Below are positions 23,809 to 52,000 of a DNA stretch of 55,531 nucleotides, piece after piece. The stretch's first letter is position 1. The number at the start of each line of letters is the position of its first letter. The position numbers and the translations under genes were made by a program. The notes below the pieces were generated by a model, which saw nothing but the letters and a program-made list of their open reading frames with translations, had not been told where the DNA came from and searched no databases. Source of the stretch: Scenedesmus sp. ARA3 (lineage: Eukaryota; Chlorophyta; Chlorophyceae; Sphaeropleales; Scenedesmaceae); the NCBI GenBank assembly GCA_004335835.1, contig RWJK01001947.1, positions 1 to 55,531 of the forward strand, given 5' to 3'.

Positions 23809-24206
23809 TCAGTACCCGCCGCCATACCCCGGCTGCCCTGTGAACCCTGCCGCTGCGCCGCCAAACCCTGCTGCAGGGTGCATGCCGTAGCCTGCCGCTG
23901 CTGCTGCTGCTGGGTCTGCCGCGGGCGCAGGCAGCGCCAGCGGCATCAGCATCTGGAAGCTGTTGGCCTGCGCCTGCGCCTGCTTCATGGTGTCTGCCTG
24001 CGCCTGCACAGCCTCCTTGGCCTCCTTGCGCTCCGACATCAGCAGCTCCACCTGCAGGTGCAGTGAGGGACACACAAAGGTTCGTGAGCTGCCAGAGCTA
24101 TGCCACATGCGCCAGAATGGGGGACGCATGCAGGCAAGGTGCCAACCAGGCCTCCTAGCGATGTGACATCTGCAGCTCCATGTGTATGGCGACAGAGCTA
24201 TGGCGC

Positions 24207-24238
<32 letters not shown>

Positions 24239-27200
24239 CTTGGTGTGCAGCAATGGCAGCTACCACCCTGAAAGCTACTGGTCAGTATCACTAGCAGCCG
24301 CACCTTGCCGCTGTACTCCTTGACAGCCATGATCATGTAGGGCATGGCGTAATCCATCAGCTTGTGCATCCGCGCCACGCACAATCTCAACCTTTAAACC
24401 CTTGGCCATACACATCTTAAACCTCGACAATGTGACATAAAAACCTGAACCGCACCTTGCCGCTGTATTCCTTGACGGCCATGATCATGTACGGCATGGC
24501 ATAGTCCATCAGCTTGTGCATCCACGCCACCTCCAGCACCACGTCAGGCCGCAGCAGCTCGTAGCAGCTGTACAGGCACGCCGCAAAGCACTCCGGCTCG
24601 TTGGCGCCCACAAACCAGCGCAGCAGCTCCTCCGCCAGCTCCGGGGAACCGCTGACTGCCACGGTCTCCATGGCGTCCTTGTACAGCCTGTAGGGCAGCA
24701 CAGGCATAGCACAACAGAGCCAGATGAAAGTGGCGTTTCAGGTCAAATATAACACATGTCAGCAGGTGCATGGGCAAATGCCAATGTCTGCATGGCGTCC
24801 GCTTGTACAGCCTGTATCAAAAAGGGACGCATGAATAAAGCAAGGTGGACGAAGCAAGCATGTCAGCAGGCACGCGCATTGCAGGCAGGCCCCAACAGCA
24901 TGCAGTTTGGACAGCATATGCACCCCTGATCAGGTGGTCGTGCCCGCCACACAATTGCCTTGGCCCGCTCATTTCTTGCACAAGGCCCGCACCCTGCACT
25001 GTCTTTCATTATGCATTTGGCGCAACATATGCACCCCTGCCAATAATGTTATGCCTGCCACGCACTTGTCTGCCTTGGCCAGCTCCACGGCCTTCTTCCA
25101 GCGCAGGTTCTTCTTGTACACAAAGGCAGCCAGCCGCCGGAACTCCAGCAGCTCGTGGCGCTCCAGCCGGCTGGCCAGGCCCACCTGCGACAATGAAGCA
25201 CATTTGATTGTTACATCTATGTCGTGCTATTGCAGTGAATGTGACATATTGGCATGAACTCCAGCAGCTCGTGGCGCTCCAGCCGGCTGGCCAGGCCCAC
25301 CTGCACACGCAGCACGTGCAACATAACCGGATCAACATCAACAGCAGGAGTGCATAGCTCCACCAACTGGCAGCACCAGCAGGCACGCAGCATCGCCAGT
25401 GTAGGCAGCCTTCACCATACAGTGATGGCATGCAGTTCTTGTTCTGGTCCACTGGCAGACACACCAGTCGGCTGCTGCGCCACGGTGCAGTCCTACAGCA
25501 TGCAGCGGCTGCTTGTTTCGTGCCATCCGTGTCCTTTGTTTTCACCGCACCTGGTCAAAGTTGTCGTGCGTGGTGATGGATGAGCGCAGGCCCTCAAAGT
25601 CCTCCTCATCAATCAGCAGCTCGTTGACCGCCTCATTGACCTGCGGAACAAACATAAGGTCAACACACGTCAGCAACATGCAGAACGGTGGATTGTACAG
25701 CAGGCCCTCAAAGTACTCATCAATCAGCAGCTCGTTGACTGCCTCGTCGACCTGCAACATTCAATGCAGACCACAAAAGCAGCCACGGCACGTCAAGCCG
25801 CATGTGTATACCAAGAAGAAAAGAGGCAGCGGCAACCAAGGCAGGGTGGCGCGGTAAACCAGCACGCACAGCTCTGCAAATGCGCGTTGCATTCTCGCAT
25901 GCGGACATGACCGTTTCTCATATGACGACAGTTCAACTTCAGGACTGCCGCGCACGCACCTCCAGGATGTTGGTCTTCTGCACGTTCATGAGGTAGTCCT
26001 TGATGAGCGGCAGCGCGCCCTCCTTGCGGAACATGAGCACCACGCGCGCGTGGTCCAGCCGCACCTCCATCGCCTTCATCACGTCAGCCAGCAGCTCGGG
26101 GTGCTCCTGCAGGGATAGGGCGAAAACAACAAACAAGGAAAGTTGAGACCAGAGTTAACAGCAGTTGGGGTACAACTGCTGCAAGCTGCCTTCGCCTTCA
26201 TCACGTCAGCCAGCAGCTCGGGGTGCTCCTGCGGGACGAAGCCCAGACAGACACACATGTGAAAACAACATTCAAAGTCGAGTATATTGAACACAACTGC
26301 ACACAGCTGATGCGGCCATTCAGTCAAGAAAACAGTCTCAGGTGCGCGCTTTGCAACAGTCTCAGGTGCGTATCGGATGGGCGCAGTTTGTAAAGCAACA
26401 AATAAATGTCAGGAACACTTGATGCGTGTACAATGCAGCACCGATATCGCTTATGTAATTCAAAACACTCCACACAAACACCGCACCTGCAGGTAGAACC
26501 TGATGCCCTTGTAGTACACGTCCACGTTGGAGACCTTGATGGCCACGTCCTTGAAGGTCACGTGCTCCCACGCCACCGGGCTGTGCGCGATCATGGCGTG
26601 AGCAGCGTTGTCGTACTCGTCGTACTGCGCACACACGACAGCAGCAGAGCATGCAGTGGCTGAGCCATAGGTGGTTTGCTTTCTGGCCACTTTTTCCTAC
26701 AGCTGAAGCTACTGAGAAATACAGCCCATACAAATGGCCTGCGGGTTGGTCTGCAAGGTGACGTTAAGTGGCACACATGCGGCTTTCCCTGCACCTGGAT
26801 GTACAGGTGCACCAGCTGCTCTGCAGTCAACCAGAACAGCAACCAATGATTTGCCTTGCTTTGACTAGTGAGCTACAGCTACAGCAAGCAAAATTGCAGG
26901 TATCTGCAGCTTCACCCCACCTGGATGTACAGGTGCACCAGCTCCTTCCAGTGGCCCTGCTCCTCGCAGACCCTGATGAGCCGCGGGATGTTGAGCCGCT
27001 TGCCGAAGAGCTTGAGGTGCTCCATGAGCTTGGCGGGGCGGAACTTGGCGTACAGCAGGCCCAGCTCCGTGAAGATGCCCATGTGCGCGCGCTCCAGGCC
27101 CTGAATGTAACAGCAAAGTAACAACGTGTTACATCTCAGGTGTTGAAAACGTGTGCTGAGTGTGAATATGTGCTTGGCGTACAGCAGGCCCAGCTCCGTG

Positions 27201-30200
27201 AAGATGCCCATGTGCGCGCGCTCCAGGCCCTGAATGTAACAGCAAAGTACCAACGTGTTACGTCTCGGGCGTTGAAAACGTGTGCTGAGTGTGATTATGT
27301 GCTAGGCGTACAGCAGGCCCAGCTCCGTGAAGATGCCCATGTGCGCGCGCTCCAGGCCCTGCGTGGGAGTGTGTCAAAATAAGTACAATGACACGACAAT
27401 GTTCTCTGACGACTGTAACTCAGCGATTGTACTCATTTATGACTTGCCTGGACTACATGAACTGTTATGGTTTGAGGCAGTTTGTTCACAGTTAGCACAC
27501 AAGGATGTGCATGTAAAACCGCCGGGATCAGCAGGCCGCTACCATGATCGTATAGTTCCCTGGCACTGCAACTCAGCAGTACACAATCACAAGCAAGCAG
27601 CAGGACAGAGATTCTAAGAACAGCGCAAACTCACCAGGCCGGACTCCATGAGGCTCATGAGCTGCTCGAAGTGGCCGCGGCGCTGGTAGAACTCTGACAC
27701 CTCGTCCAGGTCGTCCGCGTTCACGATGATGTTCAGCCCGCACAGCTGGCCCAGCTTGAACTCACCCTCCTCCACGCACGCGAAGCACACCTGCGGCACA
27801 TGGCATCGTCCAGGAAAGCACAGCGGAAACGTGTATCAGATGCTGCTGTGTTTGCTCAATGGCTGCCCAGCTGGCTCAGCTGGCAGCCGCTTTCTTCCAC
27901 AACCGCAAAGCACACCTGCAGAGCAACATGCAGCAGGCGTTTGTATGTAAGACTGAATGTTCACGATGCTGTTCAGCCTGGACAGCTGCCCCAGCTTGAA
28001 CCCGCCCTCCTCGCAAAGCACACCTGCAGAAGGACAAGAAACAGAGGTGACCGTGCAACACAAGTGGGTAACAGGGACTGCGTTGGCTGATGAGCTGCAC
28101 AGCTGGCCCAGCTTGAACTCGCCCTCCTCCACGCACGCAAAGCACCTGCAGAGGGACAGGAAGTAGGAGACCAGAAGTTGCCGCAAATACTGTAAGAGGG
28201 ATTGCGTTGACTGATCAGCCGCACAGCTGGCCCAGCTTGAAATCACGTTCCCTGCCTTATGTGAAGCCCACTTGTGGAGCAGCACAGACGATAGAAGACG
28301 GCAGACAGATGTGGCTAGAAGCGCAGCAGGTACGTTTGCAAATACCCTGTGTGACACAGGAAGGCGATGGCGCGTGTTGAGAGCACGAGCCACTACCAAA
28401 CCTTGACACATGCATTCGTGCAGAGGGACATGCGCAGACACATGCACGCAAGCACACAGGCACCCTAGGGTATTGGCCGCACCTCCTTCCAGGTCTTGGA
28501 GCTGTTGGCCTTGCGCGCTCCTGGAAGCGGTGCAGCGTACGATCACATCCTCACAAAATTGAACACCCCTCAACCTTAAACCACAATCACCAGCAGGGTT
28601 CAAGCCGCACCTCCTTCCAGGTCTTGGAGCTGTTGGCCTTGCGTGCTGCGTCCACTGCCTCCTGGAAGCGGTGCAGCCGCACAACCACAAAATCCCAAGC
28701 TGAAAACTCCAAATCCTCAACCACCAGCACCAGCAGGGTTCAAGCCGCACCTCCTTCCAGGTCTTGGAGCTGTTGGCCTTGCCTGCTGCATCCACTGCCT
28801 CCTGGAAGTGGTGCAGCTAATCGACCCGCAAACCTAAAAAAACATGAACCCCAACGGTCAGCAGCACCAGCAATGTCAAAACCGCACCTCCTTCCAGGTC
28901 CAGCTGTTGGCTTTGCGCGCTGCATCAACCGCCTCCTGGAAGTGGTGCAACCTAAACAACATGCAGCACAGAACCCCGAAATACTGAACCCCGCACCTCC
29001 TTCCAGGTCTTGGAGCTGTTGGCCTTGCGCGCTGCGTCCACCGCCTCCTGGAAGCGGTGCAGGCGCACCAGCGTGGACGCCAGGCGGCCCCAGTTGGGGA
29101 TGTGCGTGAACAGCAGCCGCGCGGCCTCGTACATGCCCTCGTCAAAGCACCTGCAAAAAAGGCGAATCAACAATAAGGAAAGAGGCCATAAGCAGATGCA
29201 TGTGGAAAGATGTGTTGAACAGCAGCCGCACCGCCTCGTACATGCCCTCGTCAAAGCACCTGTTGGATAACGGAGAAAATAGCAACAAGGCGGTCAAAGG
29301 ATGGGCAACAGGCGGCCGAAAGCAGCCATTCAAAGGAATGCACGTGAACAGCAGCCGTGCAGCCGCGTACACGCACTCGTCACATCAACGCCACACTCTG
29401 CACGCCCAGCTTCAACGCAACACAGAAGCAGCACAAACAGGCTCGAGGTGCCAAGAACAGTTAATCAGTTGCAGCAGCAGCAGCAGCAGCGGGCCGCACC
29501 TGTCTCCCACGCTCTGCAGGTTGGCCTGGTGGCTGGTGTGCAGGAAGGCGTCAATCTCCCCAAGGTTGTTCACGCGCGCGTACGCGTACAGCAGTTCGCT
29601 GTCCACCTTGGACTCCTTCACCTTCTTGCGCACCTGTGGGGTGTGAAAATGAGTGTGAAGTTGATGTGAACTCTGTGAGTGTTAACGTTGCCAGTGTGAA
29701 GATTGATAATTAATGTGAGCGTACGCGTACAGCAGCTCGCTGTCCACCTTGGACTCCTTCACCTTCTTGCGCACCTGCAGGGTGTAAACATGAGTGCGAG
29801 GTCAGGCACGAACTTTGTGAGTGTGAACCTTTGAAAGTGTGACGATTATTGCAGGGTGCGCATACGCGTACAGCAGCTCGCTGTCCTCCTTGGACTCCTT
29901 CACCTTCTTGCGCACCTGCGGGAGGGTGTGAAGATGGGTGGGAAGTTGAGTCTGAAGTTGACGGTGAATTTGAGTATGCAGCTTTGATAGCAGGCGCCTG
30001 ACATGCTGTTGACACAGAGTAAGCATTGTCTGCATGTAGGCCTACCGACCGAGGTGAGCTTCGATATGATCCCCTAGACCATGCACTTTGTACCCAAGAA
30101 CCCAAACACAAGCCGCCACGCACCATGAGCAGGTACTTGACCAAGTCCTCGTAGCACCCCGCAGCTCTGCATGCCTGAATGACTGCCAGGTAGCGGCTGC

Positions 30201-31493
30201 TGTCGACTCCGCAACACACCCTAAACCCAAAACCACAATCCGTTGAACCCTAGACCATGCACCCATGTACGCTAGACCCTAAACACAAGCCGCCACGCAC
30301 CATGAGCAGGTACTTGACCAATTCCTTGTAGCAGCAGCAGCTGTGCAGGCCTTGATGAGTGCCAAATAGCGGCTGCTGTCAAGCCCGCAACACCCCCAAT
30401 TTCCAAATCCAAACCCCTTGAACCCTCGACCATGCACCGGTGTACGCTAGACCCTAAACCGACCGCTTACCATGAGCAGGTACTTGACCAAGTCCTCGTA
30501 GCAGCCCGCAGCTGTGCATGCCTCGATGACTTGCAGGTAGCTGCTGCTGTCGCTGCTGCGCAGGTAGGACGCGATGGCATCAGGCACCTGGCCAGCCTCC
30601 AGGTACGCATGGCCCAGCTCACTCCACACAGGCGCCTCATCAACCTGCAGCCATTGCATAATGTGCAGTATGCGTTGACCAACTGCAACAAGCTAATGCG
30701 AAGCATCTGGCCACTCCATACAAAAGCGTGGCCCAGCTCGCTCAACACAGGCGCCGCATCAACCTGCCACCCAGTACATCCATGCAAGTGCAGCACGCGC
30801 CGCACCGGGTCAGAGCTCTTCCTGTCTGTGCCCAAACGCCAGCTTGACATAAGGTGTCAGGGTTCTGATTTATGACATAAATGTAACCCCTCACCTTGTT
30901 GGCGTAGTCGTGCGCCCTGTCCAGGTCCTTGCAGTGCGTGAGCAGCACCTGCACCGCCTCCACCTTCTTGCCAAACTTTTTGTAGATCTCAAACGCCTCC
31001 TCGTACTGACCAAACTCAATGGCCTGCAGCAGCAGCAGCAGCAGCACGCAGCAGTCATCCAAGGTGCGTGGCTGGCAAAAAAAGATGCATGCAAGCTGCA
31101 AGTCAGCATGGCAGCTGCATGATAAGAGGACGGGGCAGCCAGGAACGCATTCCGGCAAGCAGGTTGAATCTGCAATCCAGGCAGCAGGCACTGCATACTT
31201 GTTCATCAACGGTCAGAAATCTCCAAACAGCAGTCGCTGCATGGGTGCAACATCACAGCAGATCTTGGCACTTGGGCCCCACCTCCGCTGCCACCATACC
31301 ATCGTAGATCCCTGCCAATGCTAGTCATGCTGCAGCTGCAGTCACAACCCAGGGACCAACAGCTGTGTGCTGATTTATAAATAATAACATTTTGCTATTT
31401 TGCGCCGCACCTTCTCCGCCACCGCGGGGCCGTCGAAGTTGTCCAGCCTGTAGATGTAGTCCTTCACGCGGCTGGGGTCAGCCTTGATGGCCT

Positions 31494-31527
<34 letters not shown>

Positions 31528-31991
31528 CGCGGTGTATCTCAGCACATAACACAAGCACCATCTCAACTCAACTCAGCGCAAGTGCATCGCAGCATGGACT
31601 ACCAGCACCTGGCATGTAAGAGTGGACAAACAGTCATCAGGCACGTTGTTGCAGCTGCTTGAGCAGGCTGCTGCAACGCCTATCTCAGCCTTGCACACGG
31701 CAGCAAGAGACGGAACGAGCCTGCCGGCACTCAACACGCAGTTTAAATGTGCAGGTGCGTGCACATGCTGTGGACAGGACCAACAGGTGGGAACTGCGTG
31801 TCTCTCACCGTGAGGATCAGCAGGTTCTGCAGGTTGGCGTTGCTGCTGAAAGCGGAGTTGTTGAGCACGATCTTCTCCAGCAGCTCGATGAGCTCCGCCT
31901 GCAGCTCATGCCGCATGAAGGCCTTGACCGTCACGCTGACCTGCTCCGGGTTGCGGCTCTCAGGCAGTGCCGTGCTCACCACCTAGACACG

Positions 31992-32023
<32 letters not shown>

Positions 32024-35000
32024 TGAGTTACAGTGGCATGAAGGCCTTGACGGTGACGCGGACTTGCTCCAAGCTGCGGCTTTCAGGTAGCGCAGTGCTG
32101 ACAACCCAGCAGCAGCAGCAACAGCAGCAACAGGAAGTAGGCAAGCAGGCACCGCCAGGTGTGGTAGGTAGTCAGTCGGTCATAGAGGCGCAGTAAGGCT
32201 TTGACCTGACCAGCTTGCGAGGGCGGCTCTCCACCCGTTTCTGACGCTGCTGCCAACAGATACACGTCTAACGTTTGCGCCGCACCCGGTCAAACATCTG
32301 CCGTTGCACAAGGTGCTTGTTAGAAGCATGCCAAAAGGCATCACCCAAAAGCACCTTGTACAACAGTGGCTGGTGCCTAACATCAACCTTGACAACTCAT
32401 TACTCTGGCGTTTATTGCAGCGCCGCACCTGGTCAATCAGCTGCCGCCAGAATGCCCTTGTCCCACAGCGGCTGGTCGCCCCGGTCTACAGTCATGACTG
32501 CAACATCACATACTCCACACAATTTGAATATTTGAAAACTGAGTTCGGACTGGTAAGAACGCCGCACCTGGTCGATCAGCTGGCGCCGGAAGGTGTTCTC
32601 CTCTCCCAGCACCTAGCCCCACAGCGGCTGTCGCCCCTCGTCCAAACACCGCTTGAAAACCCAAAGCATTCAAAATTCCTTGCATTCCAATGATTTCATT
32701 CCAATTCAAAACCGCACCTCGTCGATCAGCTGCCGCCAGAGAGTGTTCTCACCTTTGAGCACGTTGTCCCACAGCGGCTGGCCGCCCTTGTCCATTAACG
32801 CGCCCCCCATAAAAACATTTGCAGCGCACCTGATCGATCAGCTGCCGCCGGAGGATGTTCCTCCCCGAGCACCTTGTCCCACAGCGGCTGGTCGCCCCTG
32901 TCCACAGTTACAACTGCATACTCAAATAATCCAAACACACCTTTGAGTTACAATTTGAAAGCAGCCCCGCACCTGGTCGATCAGCTGCCGCCGGAAGGTG
33001 TTCTCCTCCCCGAGCACCTTGTCCCACAGCGGCTGGTCGCCCCTGTCCACGATGTAGCGCGCCTGCAGCTTGAAGAGGCTGTTGCGGTTGGTGCACTCAA
33101 TCAGCGCGTCGTCGCAAGAGCCGCGCTTGTAGGCCACGCAGGCCAGGTTGGGGTCGCGCTTCTCCGCGTACTTGCCCACCACCTGTGCGGCAAAAACAAC
33201 ATGACAATAATGTAAGGCAAATAGCTATGGCAGCACAGATGCTTTCAAGTGCCAGGTTGGGGTCGCGCTTGTCCGCGGAGCGGCCCACCACCTGCAGAAT
33301 GGTGCCAGATGAGTTTCAGCACAGGTCATGCATACGCACACCAGAAGCACAGGTCATGCATACGCACAGGTCATGCATACGCACACCAGAAGCACAGGTC
33401 ATGCATACGCACAGGTCATGCATACGCACACCAGAAGCACAGGTCATGCATACGCACAGGTCATGCATACGCACACCAGAAGCGTGCGACGCACAGCATG
33501 TGTCGCACCATAGAGAAGCAGCATATCTTGCAGCGATATGCTTGTAGGCCGCATCAGGCTGTTGTGATGGGAGATGGTGGCCAGCTCGTGCATGTATGAA
33601 GGCAACAGTAGACAGCAAAGAGGACAGAGAAGGCAGGCTCACCAGGCTGTTGTAGTAGGGGTTGGTGGTCAGGAAGTGCTCTGGGTTGTTGTTGGTGTCG
33701 ATGATAATCTTGCCCAGCGCGTCGTGCACGTGGCTGTCCTGGCTGCCCTCGCGGATGAGGTGCTCCAGGAAGGGCGTCAGCAGCTTCAGCCTGCATGTGT
33801 TGTGACAGAAATAACACATGTTATGAGCAAGTAACACATTGTATGTCACAATGTGGATGCCCTAGCAGATGAGGTGCTCCAGGAAGGGCGTCAGCAGCTT
33901 CAGCCTGCGGGGTGAACAACAGTTCATAGGATGTTAGGAGCGAAGTAACACAACGTATGTAACAGGTCGGCTGCCCTCGCGAATGAGGTGCTCCAGGAAA
34001 GGCGTCAGCAGCTCAGCCTGCGGGGTGAACAACGATTCGTAACGTGCTACAAGCAAAGTAACACAATGTATGTGACAATGTGGATGCCCTCGCAAATCAA
34101 GTGCTCCAGGATGGGTGTCAGCAGCTTCAGCCTGCAGGGCAGAGAATGATTGAACACCACAGCTGAAACACAGCACAGCAGACGATTCAGCACATTGCAG
34201 CACACAAACATAGCACTTTGTTACGCAGAAACCTGCCTTGTGCAGCGCCTGTTGCGCTGTGCTACCTACTTCACCAGCCCGTCCACCTCACAACGACAAT
34301 GCAGCGTCACACTTATAGTTCTGCCAAACGTTCCAACAAGCGTCCCTCCGCACCTGTTGCGCTTCTCCACCGCCTCCACCAGAGCATCCACCTCACCAAC
34401 CAGGCCACGTCACACAAAGCGTTCCACCAAACGTTCCACCCAACGTTTCGACAAGCGTTCCGCCGCACCTGTTGCGCTCCTTCACCTCCTCCACCAGAGC
34501 ATCCACCTCACCAACCAAGCCACGTCACACAAAGCGTTCCACCAAGCGTTCCACCCAACGTTTCAACAAGCGTTCCGCCGCACCTGTTGCGCTCCTCCAC
34601 CTCCTCCACCAGAGCATCCACCTCACCAACCAGGCCACGTCACACAAAGCGTTCCACCAAACGTTCCACCCAACGTTTCGACAAGCGTTACGCCGCACCT
34701 GTTGCGCTCCTCCACCTCCTCCACCAGAGCATCCACCTCACCAACCAGGCCACGTCACACAAATCGTTCCGCCAAACGTTCCGCCAAACGTTTCAACAAG
34801 CGTTCCGCCGCACCTGTTGCGCTTCTCTACCTCCTCCACCAGAGCATCCACGGGCAGCAGGCTGCGCACGCTGAGGATGAGGTTGTTCACAAAGTCATCT
34901 GGGGCCTCGCAGTCCAGCAGCGCACCCACCACCTGCAGAACAATAGAAACAACAGCAGCCAGAAGAATGAATAGCATTAGTAGGAGTGCGCACGCTGAGG

Positions 35001-38000
35001 ATCAGGTTGTTCACAAAGTCGTCTGGGGCCTCGCAGCCCAGCAGCGCACCCACCACCTGCAACCGAAGCAAACAAGCAGACAGAGAACATGACAACATTT
35101 GAGTGCCCATGAACATGGGTGCTCACAAGGCCGACCAGGCGCCTCGCAGTCCAGCAGCGCACCTACCACCTGCAAAACAGGGCAGCCGGAAGCCATCGCA
35201 AAAGGATGAGTAGGGTTGCGGACGCGCAAAGCAAGGTTTACACCAAGTCATCAGGAGCTTCGCAGACCAGCTGCGCAGGGCGGCACGCAAGCAACCCAGG
35301 AAAGACATGTCACTGCGTGCACATGTGCGCATGTGTGTGCATGCGCAAGTGTGAACATGCCGCACAGCCATTGCCCTGTTGATGGCGCATTGCATTGCTG
35401 ATGACAGCTGATTGAACAAGAGCATGTTGAGTCTTGACGCTGTCCACGCTGACCATGCTAACAACCACCTGCCTCGCGCCTGTGGCGAGACCTTCTGCAC
35501 GCAGCCCTCAATGTACTTGGGCAGAATTGTGTGTGACCAATAGGTGTCCATCCGCGTAACAACAAAACCCTCAGCGCACCTTTGGCGTCTTCTGCGGCGA
35601 CACCTTCTGCACATAGCCCTCGATGTACTTGAGCAGGCTGGCGTTGTACAGGAAGGTGGTCAGGTCCTCCACAAGGTCGTGCCTGCAGATGCAGCAGCAA
35701 AGACCTTTGATCCTAAGGGAACAGTGAACTGTGCGAGAGCAGGCTGGCGTTGTACAGGTAGGTGGTCATGTCCTCCAACAGGTCGTGCCTGCAGGTGATG
35801 CAAAAACACATTAGGCGCACAACCAGCACACTATTCCAAAGGAGGAGGCCCTCACGCGCCCAGACTTGAACCCCAAGCCCTACACCCCTGAAAACAGGCT
35901 ATGGAGCGTATCTCGCACCTGTCGCACACGTTGATCAGCGGGCGCGCGTCAGGCAGCTTCGCCTCCACGCGGAACGCCTTCACGCACCCAGACTTGAACC
36001 CCAAACCCTACGCCCCAAAACAACAGCTATGGAGAGCAGCACACACCTGTCGCACACGTTGATCAGCGGGCGCACGTCAGACAGCTTGGCCTCCATGAGG
36101 AACGCCTTCACGCGCTCCGGGGGTAGAAGGCGCTCCACCTCCTTGATCCCAAACCCAAAACCTGAAGCCTACATCTCGAACACACCACGGCTGCACATGT
36201 GTTTTGCAGCCGCACCTGTCACGAGTGCCGATCGGCGATGACTGCTCGTCTGAAACAACACACGAACCCGAGCCTCCTAACCCACCTGTCACACGTTTCA
36301 GCGGGCGTGCGTCAGGCAGCTTTGTCTCCATGAGGAACGCCTTCACGCGCTCCAAGGGGTAGAAGGCGCTCTCACGCTCCACCTCCTTGATCCCAAACCC
36401 AGAGCCTGAAGCCTAAACCTTGAAGACACCACGGCTGTACATATCGTTTGCAGCCGCACTTGCCACACATTGACCAGCAGGGCGTATGCATTTACGTACA
36501 CTCTGAACCCCAAACACACCTGTCGCACACGTTGATCAGCGGGCGTGCATCCGGCAGCTTTGCCTCCATGAGGAACGCCTTCCTGCACCCAGACTTGAGC
36601 CCCAAACCCACGTCAAAAAACAACAGCTATGGATAGCAGCACGCACGTGTCGCACGCGTTGATCAGCGGGCGTCCGTCAGGCAGCTTTGCCTCCATCTGG
36701 ACGGCCTTCGCGCACCCAGACTGGCAACCCCAAACCCACGCTGAAAAACAACAGCGATGGATAGCAGCACACACCTGTCGCACACGTTGATCAGCGGGCG
36801 CGCGTCAGGCAGCTTTGCCTCCATGAGGAAGGCCTTCACGCGCTCCGGGGGGTAGAAGGCGCTCTCGCGCGTGGCGCGCTCCACCTCCTTGATCTGCCCG
36901 GTGCGTGCTGCAGCCTCAATGTACTTGTAGTGCTCCTCAGGGTCCTCACTGCAGGCGGTACAATGGGAGCCAACAGCGCAGACAGAACAAATGCAGCAAA
37001 CAGTTAAAAACGTGCACAACACTATCAAGACATGATCTGCCTGTTGCGCGCAGCGGCCTCAATATACCTGTAGTGCTCCTCAGGTCCTGGCTGTAGGAAG
37101 TACAATTTCAGCAAAAGACTATTGTTGAATTATCAACAAACCTGCCTGCTGCGCGCAGCTGCCTCAAAGTGCTTGTAGTGCCTTAAGATTTCAAGTCTTC
37201 GGTGCTCCTCACCTGAAAGCGATGCGCCAGCCCAGGTACAGGCACAGCCCGGGGTAGCTGTTGTAGCTCTCCAGGACTTCAAAAACTGAAGGATACATTT
37301 TGCCTTTGAACAGCCACATTCAAACACGCTCCTCACCTGAACGCGATGCGGCTCCCCAGGTACAGGTACAGCCCCGGGTAGCTGTTGTAGCTCTCCAGCA
37401 GCTCGATGATCTTGCCGCTGCCCAGCTGCTCCGTGTACTCCTTGGCAATGTTGACCACCAGCTGCAGGTTGGCCTGCGGGTGTTGAGATACAAAAGTTGC
37501 GGGAAACAGATGCATGGCAAGTTCAGCAGCATGAGTTGTGAAGGTCCTGGCTGGGTTGACCACCAACTGCAGGTTGGCCTGTTTGACCGGTCAACACTTA
37601 CTGGTCTCAGTGTAAGCGCTACTGAATTTGGTCGAAAGCCAGCATTTTTCTGCTGCAGGCGAGCAAAAGCACAGCTGCTCATGCGGCACGGCATGTCTGC
37701 ACCAGCTGCGCTTCACACGACCAGCAGCCAAGCAAGAGCCAAAGCAGCTACAGCTACGCGCCAAGCAGCATGCACCCGACAGCAGCACCAGCAGCAGCAG
37801 TGAGAAACAACGCACCTGCATGTTGGTCAGCAGCAGCTCCTTGAGGCACTCCAGCGCCCAGTCAGCACTCAGCGTGCCGAAGAACTCCGTCAGCGCCTGC
37901 AGCAGCAGCAGCAGCAGCGGCAGCAGCAGCGCAGCACATGTTTAAGAACATTCTACCGTACACAGCCTCAACACAGTGCAGTGTAAGCTTACATGTACAG

Positions 38001-39686
38001 GCAGCCAGGGCATGACAGTAGGCGTGCTGTGTGTGCAATGTGAGCAGGGACCTTGAGGTCAAAGCACGACACGGTGCAGACCTCCACAACACGCAATATC
38101 TATCAGTCCATACAAAATCATCCCACCTGCGGGTCGATGGCGTGCGTGTTGACAATGCTGCGCTTGAGGTCCTTGAGGTCGGTGTAGTGCTGCAGCGCGC
38201 GCATATACAGCCCCGCCTTCTCACACAGCTGCGCGATGCGCGGCCTGTCGTAATGAGTCAGCGTGCCGTTGGCCAGAATGGCGTCTGCAACCTGCAGGGG
38301 TAAACAGGAAAGTAAGATTAGATGGTTTGTGATGCTGTCTACAAGCGCATCTGCCTGCAGCGGCCCGTTCTCAACAAAGTCACAATTGTGCTGCGAAAAA
38401 GGCAATTGAAGATGTCCATCATCAAGTCTCATGCTTCACCAGCCGTGTAACAACACAGTGCGCACTTGCGGGTTGGTGACCAGGTTGATCTCCAGCAGCT
38501 TAGTCTGCAGCTACCTCTCCCCAACAAAGTAACAACTGTGCATAACAAAATAACACGCACCTGTGGGTTGGTGACCAGGTTGATCTCCAGCAGCTTGGTC
38601 TGCAGCGGCCCCTCCTCAGGCTTGTCGCCAGCCAGCGCGTCCAGCAGGAAGGCAGTGCCCTCACGCACCATGTTGCGCTGCAGGTACAGAACAAATGGAT
38701 TTGCACTTGAGTCAATCAGGCTACAAAGTAAGCTAGCAACACCATAGTAAGCACAGTGAAGTTTCGCCATTGGCATTGCAGCTGCTGTTGCTGCTGCAAT
38801 GCAGCTAGCCTGTCCCACTGCTTCTGTGCCCCACGATCACTCAAGCCCTCCGCTAGCTGCGCAACCTGCTCCTTGCACCCCCTGCTGCCACCATCCTCAC
38901 TCCCCTCAGCCACCGCAAGCTTTGCTTCCTATTCCTTGCAAATCGCTACAAGCTCCCACCTGCGAGAACAGGTCTGCCAAGCAACTCAGTTCCACACGAT
39001 CTGTTCAATGCAACGCCTCCAGCTGCCTCCCCCCTGCCCCTCCCATGCATCCCAACATACCTGCAGGAACAGGTCTGCCATGGTGTTCACATCCACAGGT
39101 GGTGGGCTCTGCTTGGCCACCATCTTGGCCAGGCTCACAGCACCGCTGGGGTTGTTCATCATCAGCTGCTGCAGCAGCTGCAGGTAGTTGAGGCTGCCGC
39201 CGCTCTGCCCGGTGTACGCCTGCAGCGCTGACATGTCGCCCTTCTCGGCGAGGGCAACAATGACCTGCAGCAGCAGCAGCGGCGGGGGCAGAAGTAACAG
39301 TTGATAACACGCCTGCAGCGCTGACATGTCGCCCTTCTCGGCAAGCGCAACGATGACCTAGATAGAAGGGAGCGGCGGCGGCAGCAGGACCATCAGCAGC
39401 AGAAGCAGCAGGAGTGATCAGATGTAGGCCTGCAGCGCTGACATGTCGCCCTTCTCGGCGAGCGCAGCAATGACCTGCGGCGGCGGCAGCAGGACCAGCA
39501 GCAGCAGAAGCAGCAGGAGCGATCAGACGTAGGCCTGCAGCGCTGACATGTGGCCCTTCTCGGCAACCGCCACAATGACCTGCGGCAGCAGCAGCAGCAG
39601 CAGCAGCAGCAGAACCAGCAGTGATGAGCGGATGTAGGCCTGCAGTGCTGACATGCCCACCTTGTCGACAAGTACCACGCTGACCT

Positions 39687-39721
<35 letters not shown>

Positions 39722-42030
39722 GGAAGATAGGAAGATAGAGTGTCGCAGCATGTGATGTCATTCCATCCGCCACAGCGGGTTGAAAAGCTGCTGGAGCGTA
39801 CGCTGCAGCAATATTAAAGCCGCCGTGGTGCTGAAAATGACATCCCATGCTGCCAACCTGTCAATTCAACACAGCGCACGCACACAAAACAACAGCACTC
39901 CTCGCCTGCACCCAGCACGCAGCACACACAGCTGCAGCAGCAGCAGATCTGGTGGCGCAGCCGAAATGAACAAACACGTCATGCCGCTGGTGCCGCACAG
40001 CTGGTACATCTCCAGCACAAGGTCCTTGCCCTCGGCTGGCCTTACAGACGATTGCAGCAGCAGCCATTACTGACACAGCAACCACAGACATAACAGCGAC
40101 ATGAAGCACACCTTGCCGCTGGCGCCGCACAGCTGGTAGATCTTCAGTGCCAGGTCCTTGTCGCCCGCTGCGCTGAGCATGTCTCCCAGCTCCTCACTGG
40201 CCTCCAGCTTGCCGTCGTTCCACCAGTTGACCAGCAGCTCCTTCTTGTTCTGAGCCAGCACCAGCCTGCAGGAAATTACAAGCACAACAGACAGCGAGCA
40301 AGATCAGCCACCACAGTTGTTCCACCAGTTGACCAGCAGCTCCTTGTTCTGAGCCAGCACCAGCCTGCAGGAAATAACAAGCACAACAGACAGCGAGCAA
40401 GGTCAGCCACCACAGTTGTTCCACCAGTTAACCAGCAGCTCCTTCTTGTTCTGAGCCAGCACCAGCCTGCAGGAATAGCAGCACAATAGTGCAGTCAGCT
40501 TGCCGCAGTGTGATAACACGGCTGCACCATGCTCCATGCTGCTGCTGCAAAACACAACTGCTACCCCAGCTGTACCCGCCGACCACACGCAATGCACCAG
40601 CTCCGCGCTCTTCAGCGTGTTTAGCCCCGCTGCTGCTGCTGCTGCCCGCTGCTGCCGCCACCCAAACCACCCTGTCCTGCAGTCCACCGCGCCAGCTCTG
40701 CACTCCTCAGCCCATTCGGCTTTGCCGCCCTACTGCTGCTGATGGCCATGCTGCTGCTGCCGCTGCCCAAATGTGCGCCTCAAGCCCCCTCCCAGCAAAT
40801 TGCCACGCCAGTTTCTCGCACCCCAGCGCATTCAAGCCTGCTGCTCCTGTTGCTGCTGCAAGAGCTGCTGGACCTGCCCCTACTGCTATTTACAAACCGT
40901 CCCGCAACTCACCGTGCCAGCTCCGCGCTCTCCAGCGCGTTGAGCTTGCCTTTCTGCAGCAGCACGCCCAGGTACACCAGCATGGCCGGCTTCTGGCCCG
41001 GGCTGGGCGGCACGCCCTTGAGCCGCTCCAGCACCTCACGCGTGCGCAGCAGGCCCTGAAAGTGATGACACAACGTAAAGCATGTGGAGACGACATAGGC
41101 ACATTGTCAGTTGTTTACGGTGGGCTTGTTGATGAGGCCAGGGGCCACGGCAGGCGTCCTTCCAGACAAGATTGCAAGCCAAGCAATGTGCCTGGCCAAC
41201 CTGTGTGGCAGCTGCTTGCGCACACATGACAACTGCTGCTACAGCCGCTGCTGCTTCTGCTGTCTTCAGGCTGCAACCACACGCTGTGCAAGACTCGTGC
41301 CCCCAGAGCACCTGTGGCGACTCCGGTGCGCACTCTGCTGCCTCCTTGTACTGCCCAGCACCAAACAGCCGCTGAAACTGCTGCAGCACTATTCCCTCTG
41401 CACCCGGCAACCTTGAAACTACACACAAGTACTGCAGCTGCAGTTCACTACCGCAGCCCCAATCACATGACTGCTGCCGCTAGCCCGAGGCTGCTGCCCA
41501 ATAACATTACCTGCTGCTCAACATGGCGCACTCAACACACCCCAACACCCCTTCACACACCTGTGGCGACTCCGCTGCGCACTCTGCTGCCTCCTTGTAC
41601 TGCCCAGCGCCAAACAGCCGCTCAAACTGCTGCAGCACCAGCCCCTCAGCACCCGGCAGGTTGCCGCGCTTGGCCAGCGACAGTGCCAGGTCCAGATTGT
41701 TCAGCTGCTGGCTGACAAAGGGCACCATGGCCGGCTCATTGACTGTGGCCAGCAACACCTGACCNNNNNNNNNNNNNNNNNNNNNNNNNNNNNNNNNNNN
41801 NNNNNNNNNNNNNNNNNNNNNNNNNNNNNNNNNNNNNNNNNNCAGCTGCTGGCTGACAAAGGGCACCATGGCAGGCTCATTGACTGTGGCCAGCAGCACC
41901 TGACCATGCCTGCAGCAGCAGCAGCAGCAGCAGCAGCAGAGAAAGTTGGTGCCAAACTGTACAGCTGCTGGCTGACAAAGGGCACCATGGCCGGCTCATT
42001 GACTGTGGCCAGCAACACCTGACCACGCCT

Positions 42031-42065
<35 letters not shown>

Positions 42066-45000
42066 GAAAGTTGGTGCCAGGTTGTTCAGCTGCTGGCTGA
42101 CAAAGGGCACCATGGCCGGCTCATTGACTGTGGCCAGGAGCACCTGACCACGCCTGCAGCAGCAGCAGCAGCAGCAGAGAAAGATGGAGCCGGGTTGTTC
42201 AGCTGCTGGCTGACAAAGGGCACCATGGCAGGCTCATTGACAGTGGCCAGCAGCACCTGACCACGCCTGCAGCAGTAGCAGCAGCAGCAGCAGCAGCAGC
42301 ACAGCAGCAGCAGCAGCAGCAGCAGCACAGCAGCAGCAGCAGAGAAAGATGGAGCCAGATTGTTCAGCTGCTGGCTGACAAAGGGCACCATGGCAGGCTC
42401 ATTGACTGTGGCCAGCAGCACCTGACCGCGCCTGCAGCAGCAGCCGCAGCAGCAGCGGCAGGGAATGTTGGTGCAAAGACAAGCAGCCGCATTCTGCACC
42501 CCCGACGCGTGCTGTGTTAGCGCTATAAACCAACATCCAGCCACAGATGCAGCATAGAGACAGCCAGCCTCACACCTGTTGATGGCCAGGATATCACCAG
42601 TAGAGTCCGACCCACAAGCCAGGAAGATGGGGTCGGGGCTGATGCGGTTGCGGTAAACCGTTGACACACAAATCATAACACAAGTAACACGTGGCCCTGC
42701 TGGCGTACCTGTTGATGGCCAGGATGCCGCCAGTAGAGTCGGAGCCGCATGCCAGGAAGATGGGGTCCGGGCTGATGCGGTTGCGGTAAACCGCAGTGGC
42801 TGTCTCCAGGTCGTACACAAACAGCAGGCCCAGCTTGGTCACCACGTACACCAGCCCAAAGCGCTCCGAGATCTGCGGGCGAGGAGCAAGCAATGAAAGT
42901 TATGTAGAGGTTAGTGGATAGCTGTTGGAAAGGTAGCAGCACGCTACGGCTGCGTACACCAGGCAGAAGCCCTCCGAGATCTGCAGGCCGATGACGTAAT
43001 ATTGATATGTTCAGCAGATGTGATGCTTGGAGTTGCTACTGAAGAGTCGCGTGGACACACAGTTCCAAACAGCAGTAGCTGCCCTGCTGGTTGGTCTGTA
43101 CAGTAGCTGCCCTGCTGGTTGGTCTGTACAGTAGCTGCCCTGCTGGGTGTTTGCAGGCATAGGGCAAGGTCATGCACACCAGCCGAAGCGCATGTGAGCT
43201 CACCTGCAGGCTGACTGGGAAGTCGTCCGCAAACTCCGCTGGGAAGAACAGCTCAGCGTTGCGCTTGACCGCGCCGCCTGCGGCATCAAATGTGCAGCGA
43301 CAGGTTGCAAGAAATTGGCAAAGTGTCGGGGACATAATGAGGTGTGCGCGCGTAAATGTACAGCAATGATGCTCTACCGCACCCAGCTGCATGGTCTCCA
43401 CCTTCATGCTGTGCAGCAATGCTCAGCAGTGCCACCTGCAGCTCCTTGACACAGCCACTGATGCACTGCAACACACTGCATTGCACGGCCTGGCACGCGC
43501 ATGGTGCACGTCTCCGCTTGCCACATTGCATCGTGCTTACTGCTGTGTGTCAGCTGCCGCTGCTATGTGTGCTTCCAGCCGCACCTAATGCCCCGCCACA
43601 GTGTGCGCTGCGTGCTGAGCTAGCTGTTCCACGCTCAGCTGCCCTGCCCTGTCACGTGCCAGCTGCTTCCGCACGCCTGGCACGCTGACCAACTGTCACG
43701 CACCGTCCAACGTTCAGCTATCCTGTGCTGTACACGCACAGCTGTCCCAAACTGTCCCTCGACCAGCTGCCCCACGCACCTGGCACGCTGCCCAGCTCGA
43801 TCACGTGCAGCTTGGACACCACCTGGCCGTCCTTCAGCGCCTTCTGCGCAAAGCTGATCACAGTGCTGGGCGCGTCGCGGCCGGCAAACTGCAGGCAAGC
43901 GGAAGACACAAGGAAACAAACAGATGAAGCAGGTAAGCAGTTGCACGCTAGTCGCCACTTTGTAACTGCTGCATTTGCTGCTGGTGGCTGCTGTTCCTGC
44001 AAACGGAAGCCGACGCCGCCCCTCACACACGCGCTGCTGCTTCTGCTGGAAGTTGCTCCACTGCCGCGGCAGCTGCTGCCATGACTGCCATTGCTGTGTA
44101 CACAAACCGACATGCCCACAAACGAGTGGTGCAACTACGTGCTGTGGCTGCTGGCATGCCTGCTAACACGCTACTGCTGCATGCTGCCAGCTGCCGCTGC
44201 TGCTTTGAAAGGCCTGCTACCCCAGCTGTGTCAGCTTGTTGTAGTAGCAGCTGCTGCTTCTGGTTGCGAAGCATTGTGCACGTTGACTGTAAAGACCACT
44301 GCTGTGTGCTGCTGCAGGACCGCCGCCCAGCTGCCAGCTGCGCAGCTGCCAAACGCGGCTGGCTGCTATTACATACACAGTGCATTGCACACCTTGACTG
44401 TTGAAAATGCTGGCATGCCGGCTACCAGCCGGCAAATTCTGCTGCTGTGTCATTGCTGCCGCAGCTGCCCAGTCGCTGCTCATCCATCAAAGCAAAGCAC
44501 TGCGCACCTTGACTGTGGAGAAGGCTGCTGCATGCGCCTCCAGCGGCTGGCTCTTCTGTTGCTCAATGGAGAACAGCTGCATCAAGCCGCGCGCAAGCTG
44601 CGGCCTGCAGAAAAACAACAAAACGAAGCAGCAGCACCCAAAATGACAAGGACATTGAACAAGCAACATGAGCCCGCATGAAGCTGGCAGCTTCAACCTG
44701 CAGCATAGGATTGCACACCAGCTGCGCCAGCGTCCAATGCTACTGCTGCACCCCAAAATGCACTGGCATATGCTACAGTAGCAGGGCATCGGCTGGAGCA
44801 GTGCCAGCCAACACTGCAACAACATGTGTGCCACAAAGCAGAGACTCAAAATGCAGCGGCCCTGAATGCTGCAGCAAGCCTAGGTGCAACAAAGCAGTCG
44901 CGTGCAGCGCACTGCACAGACCAGATCAACGGCTGACAGCAGGCAAGTGCAGCAGCTGCGCAATTACCTCTCGGGCGCGCCCTGCGTGATGCCGATCAGC

Positions 45001-49019: not shown

Positions 49020-52000
49020 GTCAGGTGGCGCTGCCACGTGCCCTGGGTGGGCTGGAGGCGATGCTGATGTACATAGACACGGAAGGCAAGTTCAGCACAC
49101 AGGTGAGTGCGTATACACATACAAACTTACATAAACACATGCTGATGTACATACACACAGAAGGCAAGTAGTCCCTATGCTAATGTACAGAGACAGGGAA
49201 GGCAAGTTCAGCACACAGGTGACAGGCCGGCTGCGCTACCGTTTGCCGCTGCTTGTTACTTTGGCTCGCCATCCACATCATGATACATTATATGTGCAGA
49301 AGCAAGGCGCAAGGGCCCGTGTATACACATTACGCTGCTGGGTGATGCCTGCAGTTGCGTTGCCCTGATTGTGCGGTGGGGTGAATTGCATGGTGTGTGC
49401 TTGCGCAGACGAGCGGCCTCTGGGGCATTTTGCGTGTGCTGCAACTGGTGGTCGTAATCTCCTGCTGCTGCTGCTGCTGCCGCTGCTGCTGCTGCTGCCG
49501 CCGCTGCTGCAGCGCCTGCTGGAGATGGCCTCAGCGCGCGTGACTGCTGCTGTTGAGTCTGGGCTGCTGCCTGCGCTCAGCGGCTGCCACACAGCTGTCT
49601 ATGAGTCGCTGATTGAGCCGGTGCTTACACGCATGCTGATACTGAAGCCAGATTCTGTGGAGCAGCTGCAGGCGCAACTGGAGGCACTGAAACGAGAGGT
49701 AAGGAGCACTGCTGGCTGCTTGGCTCAATTTGGCGGAGCAGGTGGTACCGCATGCTGGTATAGCTGACCCTGAAGCCAGATTCTGTGGAGCAGCTGCAAG
49801 CACAGCTGGAGGCACTCAAGCGGGAGGTGAGGGATAGCTTGTCTGTGGCTTGCCTGCTTGGATGTTGTGGCTTGTGTGGTGTGAAGCATTTGCTCACGCG
49901 CATGCTGATACTGAAACAGATTGTGGAGCAGCTGCAGGCGCAATCGGAGGCACTCAAAAGAGAGGTGGGTTCCTGTTGTTTGGGCTGCTTAGCTGCATTG
50001 ATGTTGTGTGATGTATGATGTGCAGCATGTGCTCACGGGCATGCTGATCCTTAATCCAGGCTCTGTGGAGCAGCTGCAGGCGCAGCTGGAGGCACTCAAG
50101 AGACAGGTGCAAGCCTGTTGTTTGGTGGCTTGAGCTGACTAAATTTGGCTTATAGTATGTGAGGCTTGTGCTGACGCGCATGCTTATCCTGAGGCCAGAA
50201 TAGGTGGAGCAGCTGCAGGCACAGCTGGAGGCACTCAAGCAAAAAGTGCAGGGGGCCACAGTGTTTATGTTGGCTTCTATTGCATTTTGGGCATCTGAGA
50301 ACCTGCGAATGCTGATTGCGTCACTGGTCCTGTTTTAGAAGAAGGCTCATCTGAGGCTGCCTGCTTGTTTTGTTGTGCGTCCTTCTGTTTTGGTGCACAG
50401 GTAGCGCAACGAGATGCGATGCTTGTGCTGCTGGACAGCGTCGCAGCGCTGCTGCACACCAAGCTGGGCTGCGGCGACGCGGCAGCAGCTGACTTGAAGT
50501 GTCCAATGCAGCTTGTGCTTTGTGCTTGCACAGGTGGCTCAACGAGACGTGAAGCTGGTGCTGCTGGATAGTGTAGCAGCGCTGCTGCGCACCGAGCTGG
50601 GCGGAGGAGATGCCTCAGCACCCGGCCACGTGTTTTCCCAACAGCAGCTTGTGCTTTGTGCCTGTTTCAATCCCTTGCAGGTGGCTCAACGAGACGTCAA
50701 GCTGGTACTGCTGGATAGTGTAGCAGCGCTGCTGCGCACTGAGCTGGGCGGGGGAGATGCCTCAGCGCTGGCTGCGCGCAGGGAGCAGCTGGGCCGGCAA
50801 GCCATAGCTCTGAAGGTGCTGGCTGAGCAACACCGCATACCTGTGGTGGTCACCAACCAGGTGCGAGCTGGGCGAAGCAAGGAGCTGCAATAGCAGGGAG
50901 GTAATTGTGACCAGTGTGGCAACATCATGATGTTGCTGTGCTGCAGGTGGTGCCGTACGCACTTGCTGCCTGCTGTATGCTGCTGTATAGCAGTGATGGT
51001 GGTCACTCGCCAGCTATGAGGGGTTGCGTTGCAGCACGTGGTTGTGATGCCTGAACACCCCTCTAATAGCTGAAACTGCACCTGCACTTGGTGTGGTGCA
51101 GGTCACAGCTCGGCCGACAGGTCCAGCTACACACGCCTTCCAGCAGCAGCAGCGGGGCCTACCCGGCGGCAGCGCTGCGACAAGCAAGGATGGGCAGCTG
51201 TCTGCTGCACTTGGCACCAAGTGGGCTCATGCGGTGAATGTGCGGCTGGTGCTGGAGCGAATCGTGGAAGGGGGAGAGGAGCGGCGCTTCATCAAGGTGT
51301 GAGGGTATCCATTGAAAGTTTAACCTTGACCCCCCTCATAATCATTGAGTGCGTGTATGGCTATTGGCGGTGATGCGACTCTCTGAATGTGCGACTGGTG
51401 CTGGCGAATAGAGGAGGGGGCAGAGGAGCGGCGCTTCATCAAGGTGTGCTGTGCTGCGAGGTTTTGTCGGAGGATGCCATTGATCATTACCTGCAGGGCA
51501 CTGGTACAACCAAGTGCATCCAAGCTGACGCTGATGATTCCCGCCTGTGTTGGGGTGAGAGCCAGGAGTTGCTCCTGACTGCATCACCAGTACCCATGTG
51601 CTGTCTCGTTCCATCGCAGCCAGGCTCAGCAGCGGCAGCTTTGGGTGCACTTGTCAACAGTAGTACTGATGATGCTGTGTCTGCTCAGGCACAACGCCAG
51701 GCTTTCTTTCACAGTGATGCTAGTTGTGCCTTGCGCTGCTGCTGCTGCCGCTGCTGCTGCTGCTTGTGCAACAAATCGCCAAGTCGCCCTTGAGTGCCAA
51801 CCAGGCCTATGAGTACAGGATCAGTTCAGCTGATGCTGATGCTGTTGCACTTGCTGCTGCTGCTGCTGCTGCTGCTGCTGTGGCAGGTCGCCAAGTCACC
51901 CATGAGTGCCAATCAGGCGTTTGAGTACAGGATAACTCCAGGAGGCGTGGTGCAGGTACACGGCACTGTGCTGCCGCAGTCTGTGCAGCAGAGCGCGCTG

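What the first reader, a model, noticed from the sequence alone, without database searches (positions are those of the whole stretch)
23809..46335. Introns of the clathrin gene are built from tandem 'echoes' of the neighbouring exon edges
Seen directly: 28 of 33 introns hold partial, diverged copies of an adjacent exon edge, about 75 copies in all by eye. Acceptor-side echoes always lie upstream of the real exon, and donor-side echoes always downstream. Each copy spans the splice junction; none holds a complete exon. Copies are spaced roughly 100-160 bp. Inference: repeated tandem duplication with one breakpoint in the exon and one in the intron is a main source of intron length in this genome. 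It leaves multiple decoy splice sites next to most real ones. I know of no named class of element with this behaviour.
Basis: partly seen in the sequence, partly recalled or inferred. Interest (0 to 1): 0.92.

Follow-up and report, generated by a model that had tools for sequence, protein, structure and literature searches.

The report
Introns grown from exon-edge echoes
In a green alga close to Tetradesmus obliquus, most introns of the clathrin gene contain partial copies of the neighbouring exon's edge, and similar repeats recur across sampled parts of its genome; they were likely made by repeated short duplications across splice sites, which would make error-prone DNA copying a major builder of introns here.

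Summary
In the clathrin heavy-chain gene (34 exons, 33 introns) 70 same-strand exon-edge matches lie in 24 of 33 introns; adjacent introns hold none inverted, non-adjacent introns together 2 (inverted), reversed introns none. Acceptor echoes lie upstream, donor echoes downstream, none is a whole exon. Arrays span about 51% of the gene's intron sequence. It is not local: 282.6 kb of other sequence has 187 direct against 4 inverted close repeat pairs in 88 arrays, and crude gene models put 47 of 62 further echoes at splice junctions. Homology of the farthest echoes now usually ends at the splice motif. Intron halves still match more often than chance (14 of 39 and 8 of 29 above the 95th percentile), so duplication across the junction is the best origin. 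Yet exon-half identity does not predict intron-half similarity, and exon halves diverge less than spacers (8.0% against 13.7%). I infer that exon halves are sometimes refreshed from the real exon while intron halves decay by indels. One-off cases are published; I found no genome-wide report in my searches.

The parts
23812..46335 (-). clathrin heavy chain gene, 34 exons / 33 introns (introns numbered from the 5' end)
   Evidence: spliced alignment to P0003, 1700/1701 identical; Pfam PF00637 hits on this contig
42873..43203 (-). intron 6: acceptor echo 42953-42980
41759..42708 (-). intron 7: donor echo 42576-42660; acceptor echoes 42355-42421, 42195-42256, 42077-42143, 41952-42018, 41843-41899; the 78-N run 41765-41842 probably hides the real acceptor
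   Evidence: T. obliquus model P0001 holds four similar units as protein
41056..41560 (-). intron 8: donor echo 41312-41409
40266..40912 (-). intron 9: donor echo 40597-40625; acceptor echoes 40415-40466, 40316-40364
39265..40111 (-). intron 10: donor echo 39982-40028; acceptor echoes 39633-39667, 39529-39579, 39423-39474, 39309-39357
38292..38560 (-). intron 12: donor echo 38467-38523
37474..37815 (-). intron 14: acceptor echo 37555-37578
36949..37336 (-). intron 15: donor echo 37213-37274; acceptor echoes 37142-37181, 37033-37088
35683..36774 (-). intron 16: donor echoes 36648-36713, 36520-36582, 36290-36392, 36047-36148 (split), 35919-35985; acceptor echo 35737-35788
34933..35579 (-). intron 17: donor echo 35480-35524; acceptor echoes 35234-35277, 35117-35169, 34987-35056
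33791..34813 (-). intron 18: five donor echoes between 34249 and 34736; acceptor echoes 34081-34131, 33969-34017, 33854-33904
33183..33642 (-). intron 19: acceptor echo 33251-33291
31983..32972 (-). intron 20: donor echoes 32830-32905, 32718-32794, 32568-32644, 32429-32489 (split); acceptor echo 32036-32105
30645..30894 (-). intron 23: acceptor echo 30703-30763
29634..30470 (-). intron 24: donor echoes 30301-30380, 30124-30205; acceptor echoes 29858-29915, 29719-29774 (acceptor array: exon halves 3.6% diverged, spacers 22.4%)
29151..29499 (-). intron 25: acceptor echoes 29335-29382, 29209-29259
27791..28996 (-). intron 26: donor echoes 28888-28949, 28751-28816, 28611-28682, 28483-28535; acceptor echoes 28212-28246, 28097-28145, 27959-28012
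27101..27634 (-). intron 27: acceptor echoes 27302-27358 (98%) and 27173-27229 (100%)
   Evidence: one unit appears in protein model P0002
26625..26920 (-). intron 28: donor echo 26795-26820
26107..26486 (-). intron 29: acceptor echo 26189-26228
25641..25959 (-). intron 30: acceptor echo 25700-25751
   Evidence: present in protein model P0001
25185..25550 (-). intron 31: acceptor echo 25256-25300, 45 of 45 nt identical
24688..25065 (-). intron 32: acceptor echo 24779-24811
24052..24455 (-). intron 33: donor echo 24304-24378; acceptor echo 24149-24180
49763..50239 (+). array that looks like the same donor-side kind in a neighbouring Rad51-family gene (unit about 139 bp, 3.4 copies)
11555..11752 (+). 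pair of 53-bp repeats, 100% identical, 145 bp apart, ending at GTGAGTG; donor type by its sequence, gene not identified

Best explanation
The introns carry partial copies of neighbouring exon edges, likely produced by recurrent short tandem duplications (roughly 95-170 bp) straddling a splice junction, whose extra copy would be removed with the intron because the splice site next to the intact exon is the one used. Shown: repeats almost only direct, fixed polarity, echoes reaching the splice junction, offset about 118 bp on the acceptor side, intron length rising with echo number, and similar repeats through the sampled genome. Inferred: the duplicating event itself, perhaps repair of staggered breaks by fill-in and end joining. 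Inferred: first copies then breed further copies by duplicating the whole exon-edge-plus-spacer unit. Inferred: intron halves decay fast, mainly by indels, while exon halves are sometimes refreshed by sequence exchange with the selectively constrained real exon; this would make present homology stop at the conserved splice motif.
For: 70 adjacent same-strand matches against 0 inverted, 2 in non-adjacent introns and 0 in reversed introns. Later copies repeat the full unit, spacer included. Intron-side flanks of farthest echo and real junction resemble each other more than mismatched pairs: 14 of 39 acceptor pairs (one of 40 dropped) and 8 of 29 donor pairs above the 95th percentile, Mann-Whitney p 8e-8 and 2e-4. 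One clear two-copy case in a gene related to a glycosidase of the sample (contig C1147): exon half 2 differences in 67 nt; intron half aligns with 46 identities, 3 mismatches and 25 gap columns, 0 of 2000 shuffles as good. Exon part and spacer vary inversely on the acceptor side (r -0.55, p 0.012, n=20) so their sum has a CV of 0.11 against 0.26 and 0.22; on the donor side the trend is not significant (r -0.39, p 0.22, n=12). Decoupling: no correlation of exon identity with intron-side score (rho -0.05 and 0.17); echo-echo exon halves 8.0% diverged against 13.7% for spacers, p 3e-6, spacer higher in 9 of 12 arrays. Echo-private substitutions by codon position 29/28/40, so no sign of coding constraint. 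Echo number against intron length rho 0.65, p 4e-5. Spacers are not a dispersed element: genome searches with three array regions found no other copy (one search also hit one nearby triplet repeat), a fourth matched only exon sequence of a related gene, and 88 spacers gave one cross-array hit.
Against: The homology edge is sharper than decay predicts in some young pairs: of 11 hand-picked pairs with 92-100% exon identity, 4 show no significant intron-side similarity (I14, I27, I28 donor at p 0.06, and W11555 whose 53 bp are 100% identical), and one of the 7 significant ones is a CTG-repeat match. Among single-pair arrays with at least 90% identity, 9 of 11 have a repeat tract only 0.21-0.55 of the offset, where a plain tandem duplication gives about 1 (though gaps can cut such tracts, as in C1147). 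Repeats confined to intron interiors are nearly absent: of 40 intronic direct pairs only 3, all the intron-19 minisatellite, have an arm outside echo arrays (TRF adds a 28-bp repeat in intron 6), though random duplications should hit intron interiors too. Exon refreshment rests mostly on the intron 24 acceptor array and intron 26; in I7, I16 and I18 exon halves and spacers diverge alike. Arrays were found by exon similarity, which biases that comparison. Far-echo acceptors keep a pyrimidine tract almost as rich as real ones (0.64 vs 0.68; other intronic CAG 0.48), which decay should erode.
Confidence: 0.55

Rival explanations
1. Exact exon-edge insertion: an exon-edge fragment ending at the splice site is copied into the neighbouring intron next to a splice-like motif, perhaps through RNA or cDNA, or by template switching on splice-motif microhomology. 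No intron sequence is duplicated in the first event.
For: Sharp homology edge at CAG or GTG (donor edge sharp also); young pairs with unrelated spacers; echo splice motifs look genuine although their flanks differ from the real ones; echo donors score like real donors (medians 10.3 vs 10.4; real higher in only 10 of 28 pairs).
Against: About a third of pairs keep intron-side homology and the C1147 case is a full-unit duplication. Exon part and spacer trade off on the acceptor side, as expected of a unit of limited size. No upstream-exon end attached to an acceptor echo, which cDNA would leave, was noticed in the echo list.
Confidence: 0.2
2. Plain tandem duplication alone: echoes differ in age, and intron halves simply diverge faster because both copies drift and low-complexity spacers suffer indels; no exchange with the real exon.
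For: Full-unit arrays; several arrays with equal divergence of exon half and spacer (I7, I16, I18); far more gap opens in spacers (3.3 vs 0.9 per 100 columns); C1147 fits it.
Against: No correlation between exon identity and intron similarity; intron 24 acceptor array and intron 26: exon halves 3.6-7% against spacers 22-25%; a 100% identical pair with unrelated flanks.
Confidence: 0.17
3. Assembly or annotation artefact: collapsed or mis-joined repeats.
For: A 78-N run sits in the intron 7 array.
Against: Copies differ from each other; echoes occur translated in two separately named T. obliquus protein models (P0001, P0002); repeats recur over many contigs with direct/inverted 187:4.
Confidence: 0.02
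4. Functional decoys: echoes are kept by selection as regulatory splice sites (for instance producing non-productive transcripts).
For: Splice motifs mostly intact and donor echoes as strong as real ones; use of an echo would shift the frame or add a stop in 58 of 63.
Against: Echo-private changes show no coding constraint; acceptor echoes are weaker than real ones in 23 of 30 pairs; the transcript-like P0003 uses none.
Confidence: 0.06

Closest known systems
Tandem genomic duplication crossing an intron-exon boundary (potato RdRp gene; PMC4974935, abstract, introduction and start of methods read)
   Same: A duplication with one end in an intron and one in the adjoining exon.
   Different: One recent event that made a new intron using a cryptic donor; here introns are lengthened, on both sides, repeatedly, in most introns of one gene and in many sampled places of the genome.
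Intron gain by duplication of an AGGT-containing exon segment (Rogers model, ATP2A1 case; as described in PMC4974935)
   Same: Duplicated exon sequence becomes intronic and the peptide is unchanged.
   Different: That model creates a new intron inside an exon; here echoes lie inside introns that the transcript-like protein supports (whether those introns are old was not tested).
Small tandem duplications from fill-in at staggered DNA breaks (53BP1-Shieldin-CST, PMC8355091; passages read)
   Same: Produces short head-to-tail duplications; a candidate mutational source.
   Different: Not tied to splice junctions in the passages seen; studied in mouse and human cells at induced breaks with overhangs of about 43-54 bp.
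Introners / introner-like elements (recalled)
   Same: Mass production of intron sequence.
   Different: Those are dispersed copies of one family; here each echo copies its own exon and tested spacers have no dispersed relatives.

Membership tests
Tandem duplication across an intron-exon boundary | Head-to-tail direct copies, no inverted ones | tested here: met
   70 direct, 0 inverted in adjacent introns; 187 direct vs 4 inverted elsewhere
Tandem duplication across an intron-exon boundary | Duplicated unit includes intron sequence next to the junction | tested here: inconclusive
   Residual intron-side homology above the 95th percentile in 14/39 and 8/29 pairs; not significant in 4 of 11 hand-picked young pairs; clear in C1147
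Tandem duplication across an intron-exon boundary | mRNA unchanged | tested here: met
   Transcript-like P0003 skips all echoes in this one gene; other genes not tested
AGGT-duplication intron gain | A new intron position is created | not tested
   Intron positions were not compared with other species
Introner-like elements | Similar sequence in many introns genome-wide | tested here: not met
   Four array regions searched in the genome: no other spacer copy (the tool skips simple repeats and very common words); one hit among 88 spacers
Tandem exon duplication / mutually exclusive exons | Complete exon with both splice sites | tested here: not met
   No echo covers 90% of an exon
Minisatellite | Repeat expansion independent of gene structure | tested here: not met
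   62 of 70 echo matches begin within 6 nt of an exon edge; true minisatellites occur too, in introns 6 and 19

The most novel reading that the evidence does not exclude
A splice-site-guided copying process, probably working through RNA or cDNA or through template switching on splice motifs, repeatedly writes exact exon edges into neighbouring introns of this alga, so that splicing signals themselves steer where new intron DNA is made.
Probability: 0.15. Interest if true: 0.93.

Novelty: new variant of a known kind. Interest (0 to 1): 0.66.

Why it matters
Where intron length comes from is an old question, and most intron sequence has no traceable source. Here about half of one gene's intron sequence lies in arrays anchored on copies of the exon next door, with offsets of similar size and visible generations. 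Published mean intron length for T. obliquus, 462 bp, exceeds the 230-302 bp of four other green algae in the same table (PMC5966456, Table 1, passages read). The gene is a natural experiment in splice-site choice: dozens of competing look-alike sites beside real ones, with correct mRNA still made. It also warns annotators: two public T. obliquus clathrin models translate echoes as protein.

Tried and rejected
Considered and dropped: (1) recursive splicing as a general requirement: exons after acceptor-echo introns start with GT in 12 of 21 against 1 of 12 others in clathrin (my reading), but in 4 of 19 in the genome sample (my reading). (2) Recombination between diverged alleles or species: flanks are unrelated while exon parts reach 100% identity, and the strain proteins keep nearly the same spacer translation (one residue differs in the intron-30 unit). 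(3) Echo conservation by coding selection: no sign of it. (4) Spacers as a mobile family: rejected. (5) Spacer as a small intron: in the 21 acceptor-echo introns listed the spacer begins with GT in one (I10; I7 is hidden by N).

Led nowhere: a home-made gene finder predicted echoes as exons (30-32 of 34 clathrin exons exact, with many extra), so genome-sample junctions are approximate. An ATM-like gene gave no clearly same-species protein (6 hits). Trinucleotide enrichment at array edges was weak without gene models. One search timed out and one search failed; both were redone. My notes held that first events are not plain tandem duplications; I withdrew that as a general rule after gap-tolerant alignments.

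Papers: searches (no hits); one search was rejected for a character. None of the listings showed a genome-wide report of exon-edge echoes building introns; apart from three papers (PMC5966456, PMC4974935, PMC8355091) I saw listings only. Subscription papers are mostly not held.

Full report
What the window is. The best named protein matches are Scenedesmaceae. The predicted clathrin heavy chain aligns to T. obliquus model P0002 with 1701 identities, no mismatch and 69 gap columns (extra sequence in P0002), and to transcript-like P0003 with 1700 of 1701 identical. The genome has 87.3 Mb in 1567 contigs. The gene runs on the minus strand, 46335-23812, with 34 exons and 33 introns totalling 17,431 bp. 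The acceptor of intron 7 probably lies in a run of 78 N.

The observation. Comparing each exon with all introns (score >= 36) gives 31 matches in the downstream neighbour and 39 in the upstream neighbour on the same strand, none inverted in neighbours, 2 (inverted) in all other introns, and none when introns are reversed. They lie in 24 of 33 introns. Nearest acceptor echoes reach 24-72 nt into the exon (21 introns), nearest donor echoes 26-98 nt (14 introns). Arrays from real junction to farthest echo cover 8,936 bp, 51% of intron sequence; exon-like sequence alone 3,783 bp, 22%. Median intron length is 383 bp without echoes, 357 bp with one or two, 898 bp with three or more.

Beyond this gene. 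Twenty 10-kb contig starts (every 80th contig number) gave 108 direct and 3 inverted close repeat pairs; 16 of 20 stretches had direct pairs. With 50 kb more of contig C250 and the rest of the window, 282.6 kb gave 187 direct, 4 inverted, 88 arrays, with the smallest offset at 100-160 bp in 61 of 88. Extrapolated, that is some 27,000 arrays in the genome, a rough figure because most stretches are contig starts. In 30 crude gene models with 230 introns, 36 introns hold echoes, 47 of 62 matches begin within 6 nt of the predicted exon edge, 2 are inverted, and one random intron of another gene per test held none.

Anatomy. Aligned at the junction, farthest acceptor echoes (n=21) match the real site at 0.90-0.95 for CAG, 0.62 at -4, and near background beyond; donor echoes (n=12) match at 0.83-0.92 for GTG and near background by about +8. 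The genome sample gives a sharp donor edge (n=16) and a softer acceptor edge (n=19, about 0.5 out to -30). Echo splice sites look real: pyrimidine content 0.64 against 0.68 for the real acceptors of the same introns, 0.72 in introns without acceptor echo, and 0.48 for other intronic CAG. Median site scores are 7.2 for echo and 10.2 for real acceptors, 10.3 and 10.4 for donors, with intronic AG or GT in general far lower. On the acceptor side exon part and spacer trade off (r -0.55) so that the offset stays near 118 bp; on the donor side the offset averages 129 bp and the trade-off is not significant.

Origin. Two readings compete: duplication of a unit across the junction, or insertion of an exact exon edge. 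For insertion: nine of eleven single-pair arrays with at least 90% identity have repeats covering only 0.21-0.55 of the offset, and a 53-bp, 100% identical pair ends at GTGAGTG with no significant similarity after it. For duplication: intron-side flanks of matched pairs resemble each other beyond chance (14 of 39, 8 of 29 above the 95th percentile); seven of eleven hand-picked young pairs have p below 0.05, one of them a triplet-repeat match; and a glycosidase relative shows a full-unit duplication with the intron half blurred mainly by indels. Decoupled divergence is seen even in arrays whose spacers are plainly duplicated (intron 24 acceptor side and intron 26), so duplication plus later decoupling covers most cases with fewer assumptions. 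I hold it at 0.55.

Decoupling. Echo-private changes are spread over codon positions 29/28/40, so echoes seem to drift freely. All echo-real differences fall 84/62/149, the excess at third positions fitting changes in the real exon. Between echoes, exon halves differ by 8.0% and spacers by 13.7%; spacers differ more in 9 of 12 arrays. Exchange with the constrained exon would keep exon half and splice motif similar while spacers drift; this is inference, and exon-based detection biases the comparison.

Tolerance. Using an echo site would insert a length that breaks the frame or holds a stop in 58 of 63 cases, so splicing must favour the exon-adjacent site. How is untested; a role of intact exon sequence is my guess.

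Known or new. Duplication across an intron-exon boundary is published for a potato gene and small tandem duplications have a described repair route in mammalian cells. My searches listed no report of introns built this way across a genome.

Noticed in passing
window 41765-41842: A run of 78 N sits at the real acceptor of intron 7, beside five acceptor echoes with GCA repeats; probably an assembly gap in the array.
   Followed up: partly
P0001 and P0002 (public T. obliquus clathrin models): Both annotated proteins contain translated echoes (P0001: four intron-7-like units plus the intron-30 unit; P0002: an intron-16-like piece and an intron-27 unit), so they are likely gene-model errors.
   Followed up: partly
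window 33319-33483 and 43073-43146: Two ordinary intronic minisatellites in introns 19 and 6 (45 bp x 3.7 and 28 bp x 2.6, 100% matches in TRF).
   Followed up: partly
clathrin exons after introns with acceptor echoes: 12 of 21 such exons begin with GT against 1 of 12 after introns without; not echoed in the genome sample (4 of 19). Possibly chance.
   Followed up: partly
window 49763-50239: Array that looks donor-type, with stepwise variants, in a Rad51-family gene on the plus strand.
   Followed up: partly
whole window: Very frequent GCA/CTG triplet runs (TRF); some echo spacers are almost pure triplet repeats.
   Followed up: no
L036 (contig C1147), about 1420-1800: An exon related to the glycosyl hydrolase family 1 gene of contig C250 carries its own donor echo, while the C250 copy carries an acceptor echo: related genes gained different echoes.
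   Followed up: yes
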